Origin: a virus | Length of the DNA stretch: 21,222 nt | Virus record (IMG/VR): IMGVR_UViG_3300026367_000004 | Location: 1-21,222 of that record | Direction: 5' to 3' (one strand) | Shown: in pieces, positions 91-20,500 of the stretch | How positions within the stretch are numbered: the first letter of the stretch is position 1 | How the letters are laid out: each line of letters opens with the position of its first letter | The notes under the pieces: generated by a model | Told to the model about the DNA's origin: nothing | What the model saw: only the letters and a program-made list of their open reading frames with translations | Databases searched by the model: none | Made by a program: the position numbers and the translations under genes

Positions 91-230
91 CTACAAAGAC
101 TCGAAGTGGTCACAGACACCGCGAGCAGAGATGCTATTGCCCGTGCTGCTAGGCGCGGTGTTCCAAATCGACACGAGAGCCCCGGGCGAAGAGTAGTCCC
201 AGTTGCCAGCAAAGACCGCTGCGATGTCTG
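91..230 (-). other. predicted DGR variable region (VR) at the 3' end of the mtd homologue
   Basis: The last 45 or so codons correspond to the variable region of BPP-1 Mtd. FAGNWDYSSPGALVSIWN lines up with FGGAWNGTSLSGSRAALW of BPP-1, and both end in ARGVCDH. In DGRs, adenines of a template repeat are randomised during reverse transcription and copied here. Codons at the expected variable sites are AAC, GAC, TAC, AAC, ACC, AGC, AGC, ACG, GGC, AAT and AGC. All except ACG can be derived from AAC or AAT by changing only adenines. The invariant end (codons 344-354) would hold the initiation-of-mutagenic-homing sequence. Exact borders cannot be set without the template repeat, which is not in the window. 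Confidence 0.75.
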
Positions 231-1155
231 CATAACGATCGGCGCCCCATTGCCACATATGCCCAGAGACACCTTCGCACCCGATCAATGATCGCGCAGA
301 CGCATCAAATTTCGTTGTTACTGGGTCCGTTCCGGTTTTGTAGTTATCGACGCTGCCTGTCGCAAGAGCGATAAACTCTTGTTGAGTTGGCGGCCTTTTG
401 CCAAACGCCGAGAGAGTTTTTACTGCGGTGTACCAGTCGAAATTGGCATATTGAGCAGTGCCATCCCCGCCCCAAAAACTTGGAATTTTTGGCGGGCTTG
501 ATCCATCTGCAATGGTGACGTTATAGGCACTTGTGCCGTTGATTTCTGGCGATGTATTTAGAAGGTAAATGTCTGCCCAAACACCCATAGGGGAGCGAGC
601 CATTCCGCGGGGATCGCGCACATTGGGTTTGTATTTTAGATCCCAAATTGAATATTTGTTTATCTCACTATTTTGGTAATGAAACCCGCCAATTCGACGT
701 GAGTTAAGTGCGGTATAACCGTCTGGAACGGTGTAATTCGCAGACACAACCAAACCCGCTGGCGTGGCGTATATCGCATAGTCGGTGCCGACTGTCATGG
801 ATGCTGGTAATGTAAGCGCTGTATCTTCATCATACGCATAGACCTCACCATTGACGTAAGCACTTAAGTCGGTATTTATTTTTAATGCCCCAGCATCCAG
901 TTTAAACGCGGGCTCTGACACGATCGCTTTGTTAAAAAAGCCATTAAGACGAGCATCAAGTGCTGCCGCTGCTGTGGCGACGGCTTGAGTGTAGTTTGTG
1001 TTGATTGCAAGAATGGTGTCATTCAACTGCGTGTCGATTTCACCAATTTTTCCACTAACATTTTCCGTTAGCGACTGTACAGCAGTTGTTTGCTGTGTGG
1101 CGGCGTCTGTAGCGGCATTCAGTGCTACTACTGCGCTGTCTAATTCTGCACTCAT
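91..1155 (-). CDS. mtd: Mtd-like receptor-binding tail protein, diversity-generating retroelement target
   Basis: This 354-residue protein is a homologue of the major tropism determinant (Mtd) of Bordetella phage BPP-1, the tail-tip protein that contacts the host receptor. Residues 1-75 are Ala/Thr/Asp-rich and helical, probably coiled coil. Residues 85-160 match the Mtd middle domain, with GTDYAIYA (123-130) and IGGFHY (155-160). Residues 168-354 are the C-type-lectin/formylglycine-enzyme fold, with YSIWDLKYKP, DPRGMA (181-186), WADIYLL, YNVTIADGSSPPK (211-223), GKRPP and ARGVCDHF (344-351). The start ATG overlaps the previous stop in ATGA, suggesting coupled translation. BPP-1 Mtd is somewhat longer (about 381 residues). 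The N-terminal part does not resemble the BPP-1 N-terminus, so the attachment region appears to have been exchanged. Confidence 0.93.
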   Translation of the reverse strand: MSAELDSAVVALNAATDAATQQTTAVQSLTENVSGKIGEIDTQLNDTILAINTNYTQAVATAAAALDARLNGFFNKAIVSEPAFKLDAGALKINTDLSAYVNGEVYAYDEDTALTLPASMTVGTDYAIYATPAGLVVSANYTVPDGYTALNSRRIGGFHYQNSEINKYSIWDLKYKPNVRDPRGMARSPMGVWADIYLLNTSPEINGTSAYNVTIADGSSPPKIPSFWGGDGTAQYANFDWYTAVKTLSAFGKRPPTQQEFIALATGSVDNYKTGTDPVTTKFDASARSLIGCEGVSGHMWQWGADRYADIAAVFAGNWDYSSPGALVSIWNTAPSSTGNSISARGVCDHFESL

Positions 1156-5688: not shown

Positions 5689-6258
5689 GTGAAAAAAACA
5701 ATTTTATTAATATCAGCCCTTTCTCTAACTGGTTGCGCTTCCATGACAGACGTGATGGATGGTGCATCAGGAATGGGAAAACTCAGCGTAGATCAAAACT
5801 CATTTGACAACGAAACAATAATATCTCTCACCCCAGATACGCTGTATAACCCAGAAGCTAGTATTTTTAATCCTGTAAGCGCAAGGATAGGCGCTGTTTG
5901 GGCATCGAAAGCGCCAAATTTTGTTAATCTCGCATTTCAGCAAGATGGTGGGTACGTCAGATTTCAAGAAGTATCATTTAAGGTTGACGGAATAACGAAA
6001 ACCTACAACACAGGCTTAAGCGATCTAGATTTTGACCAAACGAAATTATCTGGCATGAAAAGTACCGCCTACGCGCTAATACCTATTTCAGACTTTAAAA
6101 ACCTACTCTCCGCCAAAACCTGCCAACTAAAAATAGAAAAAGACTCTGGTTATGAATTGGCTGATTGCACGATGGACCGCATACCTGGCGGCAAAAAAAC
6201 TGCCATTTTAGGTTTTAGAGAAATGTTAACTGAAATAGAAAACCAAACATCTAAATAA
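5689..6258 (+). CDS. prophage moron lipoprotein on the opposite strand
   Basis: A 189-residue predicted lipoprotein. It has a lysine-containing start (MKKTI), a hydrophobic segment and the lipobox LTGC with the acylated cysteine at residue 16. The mature part is globular and polar with two further cysteines (in KTCQLK and LADCTMD) that could form a disulfide. I do not recognise the family. It is the only plus-strand gene, starts at GTG with AAAGGA upstream, ends in its own 12-bp terminator, and lies between tape measure and distal tail genes. One 60-base stretch I counted is 40% GC. This is the arrangement of a moron: a gene expressed from the prophage independently of the late operon. Known lipoproteins of this kind alter the host envelope or block superinfection; here that role is inference. 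Confidence 0.8.
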   Translation: MKKTILLISALSLTGCASMTDVMDGASGMGKLSVDQNSFDNETIISLTPDTLYNPEASIFNPVSARIGAVWASKAPNFVNLAFQQDGGYVRFQEVSFKVDGITKTYNTGLSDLDFDQTKLSGMKSTAYALIPISDFKNLLSAKTCQLKIEKDSGYELADCTMDRIPGGKKTAILGFREMLTEIENQTSK

Positions 6259-6276: not shown

Positions 6277-9200
6277 TCAACGCACTCCTTTTATTTTCCC
6301 ACCATTGCGACCTGCTTCTGCCGATACACCGCTGTAAACCAGCTTTTGTCCTATTTTTGATTGCAAGATATTGATGATTTGCGCAGCTACCTGCTCGCCC
6401 ATTTCCGCGCCAATAGCTTGCGGATTAGAGGACGTCACTTGCACGACGATATCGCCAAAAGTTATTTGGTTAACGGTCGAGCCTTGGACGATTTCTCTGG
6501 CCGCACCTTTTGACATGGTCAAGTTGTTACGATGGCGCGGGTCGGTTTGCGTGAGCACTTCCTCGCCTTTTATCAGTACAGCTGGCACTTCGTTTGCTGC
6601 CAAACGGGCTGAGTAGTTGTCCGAGTCTTGTCCAGCAATACCACCTGTGTGATAAGTCTGGTTATTTACTCGGCCTATCTGCTCAGCACCGTAAGCAACC
6701 ACGGCAGCTGCTGCTGCAACACCTAGAAACGGACCAACATAAGGTATGCCTGCCATAGCATTGTATGCGGACATTGCACCTTGATAGGTGTTAATACCAA
6801 TATTGTAAATAGCCGCCGCTTTGCCGATCGCTGCCAGTTCTTTATTCTTGCTGTCTGCCATCCCAACAAATAGATCGTTAAACTCCCTTTGTTTGTTTAG
6901 GCTGATTTCAAGATCTTGCTGTTCGGCAGTCTTACGGTTTTTAGCGCCACGTTCATCAGCTACCTTTTTCGCATCGTCGTATTGCTTTTGCGTGATGTCC
7001 TTATCTTTCAGATGCTTATCGAGAAGCTTTATTTCTTCTGCGTAGCGATCCTTTTCTTTTTGAAGTTCTGACTTTCCGTAGTCGCTGTATTCTTTCAATA
7101 TTCCGTCTTGGAACTCTTGGAACATTTTGAGCTGGTAGTCGTAGGACTCCTGCTGATATGCAATAACTCTGGCATCTTGGTCGCTCGTAATGCCGTTTTC
7201 TTGCATGTACGCTAATACGCGCTGCTGATGCTCTAACGTCATCTGTTCGCGCTTGGTGTAGTTGTCAGCGAAAGCTGCTAAACGCTTCTGACGCTGGGAG
7301 ACCTCTAATTGCTCCTCTTGAAGCTCAAAGCGTTGTTTGGCGCTGTGTCTCAAGCTGTCTGCTTGCGACACCGTAAGCAGCTTTTTATCTTCCGCCTGCT
7401 GTATATCTGACAGCTCCTTATCAAACGCCACCTGACGAATCTGTTCAGCAGTTTGCGAGGCATCCTGCAGCGCCTTGATATTGGTTTTAAGTTCTTGACT
7501 GGCAATGGCTTGGCGAATAGAAGCTTGTTTGGCTTTTTCGAGAGTTTGACGTCTACCCAAAGCCACAGATAATGCTGCTTCCCTTTCCTGCAGTTCGGTT
7601 TGCTTGCCAAGTGGCTTTTGCTGACGGTTTTCTAATTCATTTAAACCGTCGGTAATCGCAAGAAAGCCCGTTTGCACCTTTTTAGCATCAATCGATTCTA
7701 TTTGCTGATTAGTTAACGCAAGCTCGCTACGCACAGATTTCAGCATGACGTTAAGATCGTCAGCACTGGCGTTTTTAAGGCTGTCGTTAAAGTCTTCCGT
7801 GCTGGCAGTAACCACGTTAAACCCTGATGCAATATCAGAATTCAACAAGCTAATCGCCGTCATCCCAGTGAACAGCAAACCTAATGGACCACCAACCAAA
7901 CCCAATGCCGCACTAAGTCCACGAGCGGCAATAGATCCTGCGCGCATAGAAGCATTGTGAATATTTTGCGCCGTGGTTAATTTCTTGGAGCTTCGTTCAA
8001 GGTCGCCTTTTGCACGGTCTAACCTTTTGGTGTTATCCGTTGCAACCTGAATGGCGGCTGTGTTTTTAGCGATTTGTGCTTGGTGGGCTTGCTCGGCTTT
8101 TTCGGCACGTTTGGTGGCGACAGACAGCCGGTCTTTTGATGATGATAATTCCGTTTCAGCAATTTTCAATTTTTCCGCGCGTAACTTTGCATAGCCCAAC
8201 TGTTCCGCATGGGCCTTGGCGGCTTTCGCGGCTTCAACATCTGCCAACGCTTTGGCTTTCGTTGTTTTTGTTAGTGCTAGATTTTCAGCGGATAGACGCT
8301 CACTTGCGGTGGCATCTTGGCGTTTTGCAACGATAGATTCTTGATACGCTTTTTTCTCGATGCTTAGTTTGACTTCCGCTTTCGCCAACACCGCTTTGGC
8401 TTCTTCTACGTTTGCTACTGCGCTTTGGCGTGTTGCCATAGTGTCAGCGTATTTTGCTTGCGCTGACGTCAAAAAAGCCGAGGTCATGCGACCCGCATAA
8501 ACCGATGCAACCAAGGTGCCTGCGGTCGCCATGACGTCGAGCGTATCGGACACCGCATCACCATCGCTGGCGAATGCGTTAAAGGCTTGGCTAATGGATT
8601 TTACTGTTGGCTCAAATTCTGCGGCCAACTGTTGAGAAAGCGATTTTGTCGCATTCTGCATGATGTTTATTTCGTTGGCGATGCTGGCCAACTTGATAGC
8701 GTCGGCTTCTTTAAGCACTTTGTTGGTTGCGTAGGCTTCGTCTTGCAGCTCTCGCAAACCTTGCGCGCCATTTCGCAGCGCTGGAAGTAAGGCAACGAGG
8801 TTATCGCTGCCGAGCTGGTCCAAGTAAACGCGGGCGCTAGCATCACTGACGTTTTCCAGTTCTTTTGCCACTTTGTACAAAAGCTGATCTGGCGCTAGGT
8901 CGATAAAGTCCTGAACATTGAGGTTCAAGCCCTCAAAGAAATCTGCGCCTTCGCCTGTACCTATGTTGGCAAATTCTTGAATACGCACAGACATATCTTG
9001 CAGCACAGCATTCATCGACTCGCCATCGACACCAAACTTACTGGCGGCGTACTGAAGCGAAGTAATTTGTTCTGTGGTTGTATTCAATCGATCGGCAGCA
9101 AGCAAAGACTGCTCGCCCATTTCCGCCATTTCCTTGGTAAACGCAACCACGCCAACACCACCAAGACCCGCCGCAATGGCAGACGTAGCAGAAATAGCGG

Positions 9201-9297
9201 TTTTTCTCATATCAAGAAAACCCGCTTTTGCCGAATCGAACGCAACGCGCGTACGATCCGTTGCGGTCACTATAAATTCATGGCGAGTGCTACTCAT
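6277..9297 (-). CDS. tail tape measure protein
   Basis: At 1006 residues it is the longest gene here and directly follows the G/GT chaperone region, as expected for the tape measure that sets tail length. The N-terminus (STRHEFIVTATDRTRVAFDSA) is followed by a glycine/alanine-rich hydrophobic segment. Long Ala/Lys/Glu/Gln-rich coiled coils cover about residues 280-450 and 570-820. Hydrophobic stretches lie near 455-490 and 850-878. Near residues 883-925 is the HTGGIAG...NEVPAVLIKGEEVLTQTDPRH motif common at tape measure C-termini. With the usual rule of about 1.5 angstrom per residue the tail would be near 150 nm, in the range of siphoviruses. ATG 9297 overlaps the end of the T frame by eight bases. 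Confidence 0.95.
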   Translation of the reverse strand: MSSTRHEFIVTATDRTRVAFDSAKAGFLDMRKTAISATSAIAAGLGGVGVVAFTKEMAEMGEQSLLAADRLNTTTEQITSLQYAASKFGVDGESMNAVLQDMSVRIQEFANIGTGEGADFFEGLNLNVQDFIDLAPDQLLYKVAKELENVSDASARVYLDQLGSDNLVALLPALRNGAQGLRELQDEAYATNKVLKEADAIKLASIANEINIMQNATKSLSQQLAAEFEPTVKSISQAFNAFASDGDAVSDTLDVMATAGTLVASVYAGRMTSAFLTSAQAKYADTMATRQSAVANVEEAKAVLAKAEVKLSIEKKAYQESIVAKRQDATASERLSAENLALTKTTKAKALADVEAAKAAKAHAEQLGYAKLRAEKLKIAETELSSSKDRLSVATKRAEKAEQAHQAQIAKNTAAIQVATDNTKRLDRAKGDLERSSKKLTTAQNIHNASMRAGSIAARGLSAALGLVGGPLGLLFTGMTAISLLNSDIASGFNVVTASTEDFNDSLKNASADDLNVMLKSVRSELALTNQQIESIDAKKVQTGFLAITDGLNELENRQQKPLGKQTELQEREAALSVALGRRQTLEKAKQASIRQAIASQELKTNIKALQDASQTAEQIRQVAFDKELSDIQQAEDKKLLTVSQADSLRHSAKQRFELQEEQLEVSQRQKRLAAFADNYTKREQMTLEHQQRVLAYMQENGITSDQDARVIAYQQESYDYQLKMFQEFQDGILKEYSDYGKSELQKEKDRYAEEIKLLDKHLKDKDITQKQYDDAKKVADERGAKNRKTAEQQDLEISLNKQREFNDLFVGMADSKNKELAAIGKAAAIYNIGINTYQGAMSAYNAMAGIPYVGPFLGVAAAAAVVAYGAEQIGRVNNQTYHTGGIAGQDSDNYSARLAANEVPAVLIKGEEVLTQTDPRHRNNLTMSKGAAREIVQGSTVNQITFGDIVVQVTSSNPQAIGAEMGEQVAAQIINILQSKIGQKLVYSGVSAEAGRNGGKIKGVR

Positions 9298-9577
9298 TAT
9301 TTTGCTCTGCCTTTTCTATGATGTTCATGGCGCGAATGAATGACTCCGGCTGGTCAAGCAGACCCCCAGATAATGGAAAACGGTTTTTTTGGAAATGACT
9401 GTAGAGGCTGATTAATTCATTGCTTTGGTGACTGATCATGGGTTTTAAACAGGTGTCGGATTCAATCACATTGTCTATTACCCATTGTTTTATTGGCGCT
9501 GGGTTGTTTTTGTCGCAGTGGCGCCCCCATGTGCAGTGATTGCAGTCAAATTGATCTGCATTGCTGTACACGGCCAC
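9290..9577 (-). CDS. gpT-like extension, made as G-T fusion by -1 frameshifting
   Basis: The frame gives 95 residues from GTG 9577, but no Shine-Dalgarno sequence precedes this codon. The frame is open back to a slippery heptamer at the end of the G-like gene. A -1 slip there gives G residues 1-116, then LIIA, then this frame, a protein of about 215 residues. In lambda-like phages the minor GT product, made the same way, is a tail assembly chaperone that binds the tape measure and recruits tube subunits. The N-terminal part has a cysteine/histidine cluster (C-N-H-C-T-W-G-R-H-C) that could bind metal. It overlaps the tape measure start by eight bases. Confidence 0.75.
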   Translation of the reverse strand: MAVYSNADQFDCNHCTWGRHCDKNNPAPIKQWVIDNVIESDTCLKPMISHQSNELISLYSHFQKNRFPLSGGLLDQPESFIRAMNIIEKAEQNNE

Positions 9578-9595
9578 TGCGATGATTAGTTTTTT
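9514..9595 (-). promoter_or_regulatory. programmed -1 ribosomal frameshift site with predicted stimulatory stem
   Basis: In the G frame the end reads CGA AAA AAC TAA. The heptamer A AAA AAC (9595-9589) fits X XXY YYZ in phase. Seven bases downstream begins a 9-bp stem, CGCAGTGGC (9581-9573) pairing with GCCACTGCG (9522-9514). The 50-base loop contains a smaller hairpin, TGCAG...CTGCA. The spacing is what a frameshift-stimulating structure needs. A -1 slip leads into the T frame. Confidence 0.8.
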
Positions 9596-9936
9596 CGATC
9601 TGTTTCGCTAATAAAGGCGCGATTGATGATCTCGTTAAATACTTCGTTAAGGTATTTTTGAGGCACCATATCGAGCATAAAGTGGTTGTATATGAGCGGT
9701 TCGCCTTTTTCATCTACCACACCTTTCCACCCCTGAATACCAAGGCGCAACGCATCACGGATAGATTGCCCGTTATAGACAAAGTAGCCTTCTGCACTCA
9801 CGCTGGCACCCGATTGTACTTGCATAAATTCAAGGCCAGAAAGCGGCTTTAACAGCCACTCTACTTGGCCTGACTCATCACGACCCGATTTAAACCAAGT
9901 GGGAGCGACTTTGCTTTCTTGATTGATGGTTATCAC
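9586..9936 (-). CDS. tail assembly chaperone (gpG-like)
   Basis: A 116-residue protein located between tail tube and tape measure genes, the conserved position of the G chaperone of siphoviruses. It is mostly mixed helix with ...SGLEFMQVQSG... and a C-terminal acidic/basic end (ETDRKN). It starts with GTG 9936, which has a strong AAGGAG seven bases upstream. Its last codons form the slippery sequence for the G-T fusion. It presumably keeps the tape measure soluble during tail assembly and is absent from the finished virion, as known for lambda gpG. Confidence 0.8.
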   Translation of the reverse strand: MITINQESKVAPTWFKSGRDESGQVEWLLKPLSGLEFMQVQSGASVSAEGYFVYNGQSIRDALRLGIQGWKGVVDEKGEPLIYNHFMLDMVPQKYLNEVFNEIINRAFISETDRKN

Positions 9937-9947
9937 AATGTAACTCC

Positions 9948-10880
9948 TTACGTGAATAACAAGCTGAATTCGTCATCGCCAGCGGTTGGCAATGCGGCCA
10001 AACTGATATCGCGCGTGACTTGACCATTACGATCGGCGGCTTTTGGTGCGGCAACGTTGTACACTTTTGGCATGGAAATGGTGTAAATATTGCCAGCTTG
10101 AGTACCGATTCCACCCGTTGTTAATACTGATTCGGCGCCATTTTTCCAATCGATTAAGTAGTCCTTTTGATCGGCTGTTTTGGCGAGAGGATCGATAGAA
10201 CCTGTGACATTACGATCGCTAATATAAATAGCACCGTAACCGTCTGTGCTAGACATGGAGTCTGGCGTGGCAACGGCAATGCCCATATCAACCGTTAATT
10301 TCGACACATCTAACGCACCGCCTAAACTGAAAGCAACACCAATCAAAGGCACCGGCACAATGGACGAATAGGCCGCTGTTGGCACTAAAGTGGCAGAGAT
10401 ATTGCCAGACTGATGACCTGTAAAAGTGAATGACGCTTTGCCGATTGATCCAGTTGAAAGATCAAAGGTCACTTTGCCCATGCAGCCGGTTAACTTGATA
10501 ACGTCGCCATCTTCCCACACGTAAATAGTGCAAGCTTGCTGCCCTGTGGTGGCTGGCAAGTATTCGACCGATGTATCTGCTGTAATGGTTTCTTGGAAAC
10601 CGCAGGCTTTCAGCGCGTCGCCCATTTCTGGTGCCGCACCAACAACGCCCGACCCTTTAATCTCCATGGTGAAAGACACTTCAATCAAGTGGCCAGCATA
10701 GATTTTTTTCAGTTCACCAAACGTGGCGCGCACTGGGTTACGATCGGCCATTCGCTCATTGGCTGGTGACCACTTTAGATCTTCCACCAATTTGGCGTTT
10801 TCTGCGGCTGTTGGCTCGGCATCGGTGCCTTGGGTGGCTTCAATTTTTAGAGCGATAACACTACGCTTTGTCAGTTTCAT
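9948..10880 (-). CDS. major tail (tube) protein
   Basis: A 310-residue tail tube protein of the lambda gpV position. It begins MKLTKRSVIALKIEATQGTDAEPTAAENA, typical of tube proteins, and is dominated by beta strands with Gly/Thr/Ser-rich turns: ADRNPVRATFG, GHLIEVSFTMEIKGSG, and a C-terminal repeat of the strand pattern. Two such beta domains may be fused, since the protein is longer than many tube proteins. ATG 10880 lies inside the 3' end of a 38-codon frame, with only a weak ribosome-binding site, so translation may be coupled. Confidence 0.85.
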   Translation of the reverse strand: MKLTKRSVIALKIEATQGTDAEPTAAENAKLVEDLKWSPANERMADRNPVRATFGELKKIYAGHLIEVSFTMEIKGSGVVGAAPEMGDALKACGFQETITADTSVEYLPATTGQQACTIYVWEDGDVIKLTGCMGKVTFDLSTGSIGKASFTFTGHQSGNISATLVPTAAYSSIVPVPLIGVAFSLGGALDVSKLTVDMGIAVATPDSMSSTDGYGAIYISDRNVTGSIDPLAKTADQKDYLIDWKNGAESVLTTGGIGTQAGNIYTISMPKVYNVAAPKAADRNGQVTRDISLAALPTAGDDEFSLLFT

Positions 10881-11669: not shown

Positions 11670-12014
11670 TTACGCCTTTTTAGCTGCGCCTAGCGAGACA
11701 AAACGATCGAATGCGGCTTTGTCTTTCGCAGTGAAAGGAGTGCCAGGCTTATGGTTGCCCACGGTATTAATCGCGATCATGTCGAGAGAGCTTGATTGTG
11801 GCGTTACTTTAGCTGCGGCCGCTTCCGCCGCTTTGGCTTCTTCAGCTGCTTTGGCTTCTTCAGCTGCTTTGGCTTCTTCAGCCGCTTTGGCTTCTTCAGC
11901 TGCTTTGGCTTCTTCAGCTGCTTTGGCTTCTTCAGCTGCTTTAGCTTCTTCAGCCGCTTTGGCTTCTTCCGCTGCTTTGGCTTTTGCTGTTTGATCTTTT
12001 TGCGCTTGAGTCAT
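11670..12014 (-). CDS. gpFI-like DNA packaging protein with a repeat helix
   Basis: A 114-residue protein located between capsid and FII-like genes, the place of lambda gpFI, which helps packaging. Residues 12-65 consist of eight exact AKAAEE hexapeptides plus one AKAAEA, which should form a single long charged helix. Residues 77-114 (MIAINTVGNHKPGTPFTAKD, then AAFDRFVSLGAA) resemble the C-terminal domain of gpFI with its PGT-x-F motif. GGAG lies seven bases before ATG 12014, just after a hairpin terminator. The repeat may be length-variable between related phages. Confidence 0.72.
   Translation of the reverse strand: MTQAQKDQTAKAKAAEEAKAAEEAKAAEEAKAAEEAKAAEEAKAAEEAKAAEEAKAAEEAKAAEAAAAKVTPQSSSLDMIAINTVGNHKPGTPFTAKDKAAFDRFVSLGAAKKA
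11820..11981 (-). repeat. 18-bp tandem repeats, eight full copies plus one degenerate
   Basis: Eight 18-base units encode AKAAEE (11838-11981), and a ninth, diverged unit (AKAAEA) lies at 11820-11837. Units are nearly identical in DNA, differing at a few third positions, which points to recent expansion by slippage or recombination. Frame is kept in multiples of six residues. Confidence 0.9.
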
Positions 12015-19481: not shown

Positions 19482-20195
19482 TCACTTAGCCATCTTAGAC
19501 GCATAATATTTTGCAGCTTCCGAAAACTCCTCACTTATTACCTGTCTCGCCATCTTGTCTGCCTCTTTATAAAAAGGTAAACGTCTTTCGTAACTCGGCA
19601 CGCTCTCAGTAAATGCAATGACTTGCTTGAGCTTCTTACCTTGCTTGTAGTAAATACCAATAGGTTTGTGTGGCGACTTCGGCAAGATGAAATACTTGCG
19701 CGCTTTGCGTGATGTATTCTGATGACTCCCAGCCTCTGTAAACGCCTGAACATCACGTAATATATGGGCTGACATAGCCTTGGTTATATTGCCAAATCTA
19801 TCCAGCTTTACATCACCACCAGGCACAGCGAACTGATTGCCGCGAATCAAGCCCGCACGACGCAACCTTTTTTCGAACGCTTTAGGCTTACGATCCCCTC
19901 CCGATATCATTGGGTCTAGATGGTTTAACACACCACCATTGGCACCCTTCAAGAAGACAGCGGCCTCTAAGTTTTTTTGATTAGAGTATCGATTATAAAC
20001 AGAGTTCAGCGTCCATCTTGTTGGTCTGTCTATGTATTTTGGCAGAACAACCTTAACCAAATGCTCCTTAACCTTATCGGCGGTGCGGTTCAAAGCACGT
20101 ACTGTTGCCTTTGGAATCACATCCTTGTGCAACTGATTTAGTACACGCTCAACATGCTTTGCATCGTCTTTGATCGAGAATCTAAAATCATCCAT
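19482..20195 (-). CDS. phage virion/tail assembly protein, minor tail protein Z-like
   Basis: A 237-residue basic protein from ATG 20195 (GTG 20201 is a less likely start). The N-terminal helix with PKATVRALNRTADKVKEHL is the Ala-x-Asn-Arg pattern of gpZ-like proteins. It is followed by RPTRWTLNSVY and strands LEAAVFLK, then FAVPGGDVKLDRFGNITK and a basic C-terminal domain with ARKYFILP and GIYYKQGKK. I recognise this as a widespread phage morphogenesis family, although its exact role is uncertain. It starts inside the spanin-like lipoprotein gene and lies before the terminase genes, unlike lambda Z, which lies between FII and U. Confidence 0.55.
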   Translation of the reverse strand: MDDFRFSIKDDAKHVERVLNQLHKDVIPKATVRALNRTADKVKEHLVKVVLPKYIDRPTRWTLNSVYNRYSNQKNLEAAVFLKGANGGVLNHLDPMISGGDRKPKAFEKRLRRAGLIRGNQFAVPGGDVKLDRFGNITKAMSAHILRDVQAFTEAGSHQNTSRKARKYFILPKSPHKPIGIYYKQGKKLKQVIAFTESVPSYERRLPFYKEADKMARQVISEEFSEAAKYYASKMAK

Positions 20196-20439
20196 CAACA
20201 CACTGCCTGAGCTGTTCGATGTAGGCAGTTATCTGCCCCATCTCATCTATTGGGACGATGAACGCTACGTCATTGACCGTCGTGTTTATCAGTACTGGTT
20301 CCACCGTCGTGCATGGAATCGGCTGAGTCTTTGGGCTTATCAGGCTTAGCGCTTGGCACCCGCCCAAACTGGCGCAGATAGTTAGCAGGATCATTGCGCG
20401 CTTGATTGAGTCGCTCTTGCTTCTTTGCTTGATCATCAC
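20188..20439 (-). CDS. lysis lipoprotein, outer-membrane spanin (Rz1-like)
   Basis: An 83-residue lipoprotein precursor. KRAMILLTICASLGGC gives a signal peptide and lipobox (LGGC, cysteine 28), and the mature part is about 55 residues with a second and third cysteine. It starts inside the preceding gene and overlaps it out of frame by about 170 bases, the hallmark of Rz/Rz1 spanin pairs that fuse the inner and outer membranes at lysis. The mature part is less proline-rich than lambda Rz1. GTG 20439 and ATG 20436 are both possible starts; GGAAGAG lies upstream. Confidence 0.6.
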   Translation of the reverse strand: MMIKQRSKSDSIKRAMILLTICASLGGCQALSLISPKTQPIPCTTVEPVLINTTVNDVAFIVPIDEMGQITAYIEQLRQCVDG

Positions 20440-20500
20440 GTCTCTTCCACTGAACTGCTTGCTCTAACAGAACAAGCAGTAATTTAGCCCAACTAAGCAT
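20270..20500 (-). CDS. small lysis-cassette protein, possible inner-membrane spanin
   Basis: A 76-residue protein with a short hydrophobic N-terminus (SWAKLLLVLLEQAV), then a charged helix (RRDDQAKKQERLNQARNDPA) and a polar, probably disordered tail. The 170-base out-of-frame overlap with a lipoprotein gene and its position after a holin-like gene suggest the inner-membrane partner of a spanin pair. However, it is short and its hydrophobic segment is weak for a membrane anchor. It overlaps the holin-like stop by eight bases. Small proteins with an N-D-P-A-x-Y-L-R-x-F-G segment occur in phage lysis regions. Confidence 0.5.
   Translation of the reverse strand: MLSWAKLLLVLLEQAVQWKRRDDQAKKQERLNQARNDPANYLRQFGRVPSAKPDKPKDSADSMHDGGTSTDKHDGQ

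What the first reader, a model, noticed from the sequence alone, without database searches (positions are those of the whole stretch)
9290..9936. G/GT programmed -1 frameshift with a well-placed stimulatory stem
A AAA AAC lies in phase one codon before the G stop. A perfect 9-bp stem begins seven bases later and encloses a second hairpin. The -1 frame joins directly to the T frame, whose own GTG has no ribosome-binding site. Tail chaperone frameshifting is widely conserved; A AAA AAC with this long-looped stem is a specific, testable variant. A Cys/His cluster in the T part is an extra feature.
Basis: partly seen in the sequence, partly recalled or inferred. Interest (0 to 1): 0.62.

Follow-up and report, generated by a model that had tools for sequence, protein, structure and literature searches.

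The report
Ordinary phage tail-chaperone ribosomal frameshift
This marine-bacterium prophage almost certainly makes its tail-assembly chaperone in a short and a long form by having ribosomes slip back one base at AAAAAAC, a device already known from many tailed phages, here in a protein family that the libraries searched do not name.

Summary
Between the tail-tube and tape-measure genes (minus strand), gene G ends CGA AAA AAC TAA, an in-phase A AAA AAC slip site whose last codon abuts the stop. The -1 frame runs on for about 100 codons (T) to the tape-measure start. In 23 distinct junctions (window included) the G/T boundary always has an in-phase slippery heptamer (19 A AAA AAC, 3 A AAA AAA, 1 G GGA AAC). 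In 8 of them T has no start codon near the junction, and in 4 the G stop lies well beyond the site, so reinitiation cannot make T there. The predicted G fold best matches solved tail assembly chaperones. Programmed -1 frameshifting to a G-T fusion is the best explanation (about 95%).

The stem is partly supported. In the window it is 10 bp, perfect, 6 nt downstream, and more stable than synonymous shuffles. Its outer 7 bp recur in most near relatives, but the encoded protein already dictates most of that complementarity, and distant relatives lack it.

The arrangement is known: AAAAAAC at tail-chaperone frameshifts is published for Loki, phiCbK and HCTV-2. New member of a known kind, low interest. 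The conserved four-Cys T domain is the least familiar part.

The parts
9586..9936 (-). Gene G: tail assembly chaperone, short form, 116 aa, GTG start with AAGGAG upstream
   Evidence: predicted fold (pLDDT 86) best matches YqbN 3klu, 5ir0 and HK97 chaperone 2ob9; viral tail assembly chaperones; phrog_313 in 4 relatives
9589..9595 (-). Slippery heptamer A AAA AAC in G phase
   Evidence: in-phase slippery heptamer kept in all 23 distinct junctions
9586..9588 (-). G stop codon TAA, directly after the heptamer
9290..9595 (-). T part, reached by -1 frameshift; 101 codons from the slip site, four conserved Cys
   Evidence: open in all relatives but L040, which has one TAA near its end
9573..9582 (-). 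5' arm of the 10-bp stem (TCGCAGTGGC), 6 nt after the heptamer
9513..9522 (-). 3' arm of the stem (GCCACTGCGA)
9948..10880 (-). Tail tube protein gene upstream (context)
   Evidence: PF18906 Phage_tube_2, E 1.8e-19
6277..9297 (-). Tape measure protein gene downstream (context)
   Evidence: phrog_2854 tape measure, E 4.6e-38

Best explanation
Most ribosomes translate G and stop at 9588-9586. A minority slip one base back on A AAA AAC (tRNAs re-pairing on AAA AAA), probably helped by the stem 6 nt downstream, and continue in the -1 frame to make a G-T fusion of about 215 aa. By analogy with lambda, G coats the tape measure protein and the T part of the rarer G-T recruits the tube protein, and both leave the finished tail. 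Shown here: the anatomy, its conservation, and a chaperone-like predicted fold of G. Inferred: that slippage happens, its rate, the stem's role, and the function of T.
For: Gene order tube-G-T-tape measure. [quoted passage not shown] No T start codon near the junction in L005, L006, L009, L024, L025, L029, L031, L039; the G stop is 27 to 108 nt past the heptamer in L005, L006, L010, L039. T is better conserved than G (71-97% against 52-71% in the closest four). G fold matches known chaperones. Downstream structure exceeds the synonymous null at junctions compared with tape-measure windows (mean z -1.29 against -0.27, p 0.0016).
Against: No experiment was run. A_AAA_AAC is reported as much less shift-prone than A_AAA_AAG in E. 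coli (PMC5009743). The window's G and T match no Pfam or NCBIfam family, and PHROG only at noise level. The stem is not kept in distant relatives.
Confidence: 0.95

Rival explanations
1. T is a separate protein made by termination-reinitiation at GTG 9577, 8 nt after the G stop.
For: A GTG lies close behind the G stop in the window, L003, L004, L015 and L016.
Against: No ribosome-binding site. The GTG is GTC or GTA in other relatives, and eight have no T-frame start near the junction. The heptamer and its phase would have no reason to be kept.
Confidence: 0.02
2. The fusion comes from transcriptional slippage on the A run rather than ribosome slippage.
For: A runs of 6-9 at the junction; 9 A in L020 and L022.
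Against: Only 6 A in the window and in several relatives, short for polymerase slippage (general knowledge); G GGA AAC in L011 has no long run.
Confidence: 0.03
3. The frame break is a sequencing error or a mutation in one fused gene.
For: None found.
Against: Same break, same phase, in 23 distinct sequences from isolates and metagenomes.
Confidence: 0.005
4. Frameshifting is real but the stem plays no part; its complementarity is a by-product of the encoded IAV...RHCD residues. (Compatible with the best explanation; it concerns only the stem.)
For: Synonymous resampling already gives about 6.3 of the 7 outer pairs; stem broken in L020-L022 and weak or absent in L040 and L042.
Against: Window MFE p 0.004; synonymous variation lowered in the outer-stem codons (0.003 and 0.027 of random codon sets as low); two compensatory pair changes, in L015 and L032.
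Confidence: 0.3

Closest known systems
Lambda G/GT tail assembly chaperone frameshift
   Same: Position between tube and tape measure, -1 shift near the end of G, T part of roughly 100 residues running to the tape measure gene
   Different: Slip site A AAA AAC instead of lambda's GGGAAAG (lambda site from general knowledge); no family-level sequence match found; T carries four conserved Cys
Acinetobacter phage Loki gp12/gp13 and Caulobacter phage phiCbK gp93/gp94
   Same: Proposed tail-chaperone frameshift at AAAAAAC; in Loki directly next to the gp12 stop, as here (PMC5313236; PMC3556154)
   Different: Different protein sequences (no hit to Loki or phiCbK); stems not compared
HK97 tail assembly chaperone (2ob9) and YqbN (3klu)
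   Same: Predicted fold of G: Z 5.2 and 6.0, the top hits together with 5ir0, clear of the next row at 3.1
   Different: 7% identity; modest Z values

Membership tests
Tail assembly chaperone G/GT with programmed -1 frameshift | Two overlapping frames between tail tube and tape measure genes | tested here: met
Tail assembly chaperone G/GT with programmed -1 frameshift | In-phase X XXY YYZ near the end of G with T in the -1 frame | tested here: met
Tail assembly chaperone G/GT with programmed -1 frameshift | Conservation of the shift site where T has no start of its own | tested here: met
Tail assembly chaperone G/GT with programmed -1 frameshift | Chaperone fold of G | tested here: met
   predicted model only: top three solved matches 3klu, 5ir0, 2ob9, of which 2ob9 is titled as the HK97 chaperone; viral chaperones, Foldseek E from 3.5e-4
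Tail assembly chaperone G/GT with programmed -1 frameshift | Recognised by a curated family model | tested here: inconclusive
   no Pfam or NCBIfam hit for window G or T; phrog_313 best E 1.6e-4, in 4 relatives at E 0.1
Tail assembly chaperone G/GT with programmed -1 frameshift | G-T fusion protein made in a small fraction and needed for tails | not testable with these tools
   needs mass spectrometry or a reporter assay
Stem-stimulated -1 frameshift | Downstream stem at about 5-9 nt that is selected as RNA | tested here: inconclusive
   present and stable in the window; selection signal modest and confounded by coding

The most novel reading that the evidence does not exclude
The T part is a distinct four-cysteine, probably zinc-binding, tail-chaperone domain family in marine and rhizobial phages that is expressed only by frameshift, so that it goes unannotated (as in Alteromonas phage P24).
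Probability: 0.5. Interest if true: 0.25.

Novelty: new member of a known kind. Interest (0 to 1): 0.15.

Why it matters
It extends the G/GT frameshift to a chaperone family that the Pfam and NCBIfam models searched do not name. It also shows a T frame with no annotated gene in Alteromonas phage P24 and only a shortened one in Agrobacterium phage JP1. Sequence comparison shows that T cannot be translated separately in several relatives, so the fusion can be predicted with confidence.

Tried and rejected
Direct family hits for window G and T: none in Pfam or NCBIfam, only noise in PHROG. L002 from the G scan is a spurious 12-residue match in another frame. The first genome-contig scan with G found nothing. 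A pseudoknot between the stem loop and downstream sequence: best 7 bp in the window; the downstream half is not the same in L003, so I dropped it. The T fold model is of middling confidence (pLDDT 70) and gave no significant viral match. RNAalifold on 17 sequences gave only a weak consensus (-3.1 kcal/mol) with the outer 4 pairs kept. No mtd-like gene or copy of its variable end was found in the stretches fetched from two Marinomonas prophages.

Full report
What is there. The window is a virus record of 21,222 bases with its structural genes on the minus strand. The order is tail tube (10880-9948, PF18906), G (9936-9586), T (-1 frame, to 9290), tape measure (9297-6277, phrog_2854). Its nearest relatives are Marinomonas prophages. 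G has a good ribosome-binding site (AAGGAG) before its GTG; T's GTG at 9577 has none. G ends CGA AAA AAC TAA, so the heptamer A AAA AAC (9595-9589) is in phase and abuts the stop.

Is the heptamer more than chance? By itself no: the window's genes hold 25 in-phase X XXY YYZ sites in 6274 codons. What carries the case is comparison. Searches with tube and T gave 23 distinct junctions including the window. All have an in-phase slippery heptamer at the point where T begins: 19 A AAA AAC, 3 A AAA AAA (L020, L022, L039) and 1 G GGA AAC (L011). G is only 14-38% identical to the window in the more distant ones, so the site outlasts the protein around it.

Does T start by itself? In L005, L006, L009 (Alteromonas phage P24), L024, L025, L029, L031 and L039 the T frame has no ATG, GTG or TTG between its upstream stop and 100 nt past the junction. 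In L005, L006, L010 and L039 the G frame runs 27-108 nt past the heptamer before its stop, so no stop sits there to reinitiate from. In P24 no gene is annotated over T, and in JP1 only a shortened one. These relatives leave frameshifting as the way to express T.

Is G a chaperone? No curated family matches the window's G. Its AlphaFold model (17 sequences, pLDDT 86) has as its best solved matches YqbN 3klu (Z 6.0), 5ir0 (5.6) and the HK97 chaperone 2ob9 (5.2), with the next row at 3.1. Viral library hits include several named tail assembly chaperones, and phrog_313 (tail assembly chaperone) reaches E 1.6e-4 in relatives. The Z values are modest; together with the gene order they suffice.

The stem. 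In the window it is 10 bp, perfect, 6 nt after the heptamer, with MFE -32.9 kcal/mol, below synonymous shuffles (p 0.004). Over 18 junctions, structure is stronger than in tape-measure windows of the same sequences (mean z -1.29 against -0.27, p 0.0016; the sequences are related, so indicative only). The outer 7 pairs are complete in 13 of 17 ungapped sequences. Two pairs show a change on both sides that is compensatory in a folded helix: C-G to U-A in L015 and G-C to A-U in L032, where the helix is again 10 of 10. Outer-stem codons vary less at synonymous sites than random codon sets (0.003 of sets as low in five close sequences, 0.027 in 17). Against this, resampling synonymous codons already gives about 6.3 of the 7 outer pairs, because the encoded residues fix most of them, and the helix is broken in L020-L022. 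The stem is a likely stimulator in this clade, not a family-wide feature.

The T part. Four cysteines (C18, C21, C27, C49 of T) are invariant or nearly so; the His next to C27 is replaced in the rhizobial phages. A metal site is an inference. The T model is of middling confidence and matched nothing.

What is known. G-T frameshifting is conserved in long-tailed phages (review PMC5009743). A_AAA_AAC is given there for HCTV-2, and is reported for Loki directly next to the gp12 stop (PMC5313236) and for phiCbK, with GGGAAAC in Colossus (PMC3556154). PMC3711429 lists A_AAA_AAC among its consensus frameshift heptamers and measured 6-7% shifting for two tail-chaperone genes. The finding is therefore a sound but ordinary case.

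Noticed in passing
window 91-1155 (-): Product matches Mtd second domain (PF21916, E 3e-16), from the Bordetella phage tropism determinant; it may be the target of a diversity-generating retroelement whose template and reverse transcriptase would lie beyond the window end. No copy of its 3' end elsewhere in the window and no homologue in the two Marinomonas stretches checked.
   Followed up: partly
window 11822-11983 (ORF 11670-12014, -): Nine 18-bp tandem repeats encoding (KAAEEA)n inside a small gene between capsid and tail genes.
   Followed up: no
window 5689-6258 (+): A putative lipoprotein gene on the opposite strand within the tail operon, no Pfam match; looks like a moron gene.
   Followed up: no
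window 20188-20500 (-): Two overlapping small frames, one with a lipoprotein signal (GGCQ), arranged like Rz/Rz1 spanins; no Pfam match.
   Followed up: no
L005 4786-4891, L006 4776-4893, L039: In these relatives the G frame continues about 33-38 codons past the slip site in a Ser/Thr/Ala-rich tail overlapping the conserved T frame, so the same DNA is read in two frames.
   Followed up: partly
L040 (T frame): The T frame of this genome's copy holds one in-frame TAA near its end, possibly a decayed prophage.
   Followed up: no
L009 2011-2304 (Alteromonas phage P24): No gene is annotated over the T frame in the deposited record.
   Followed up: yes
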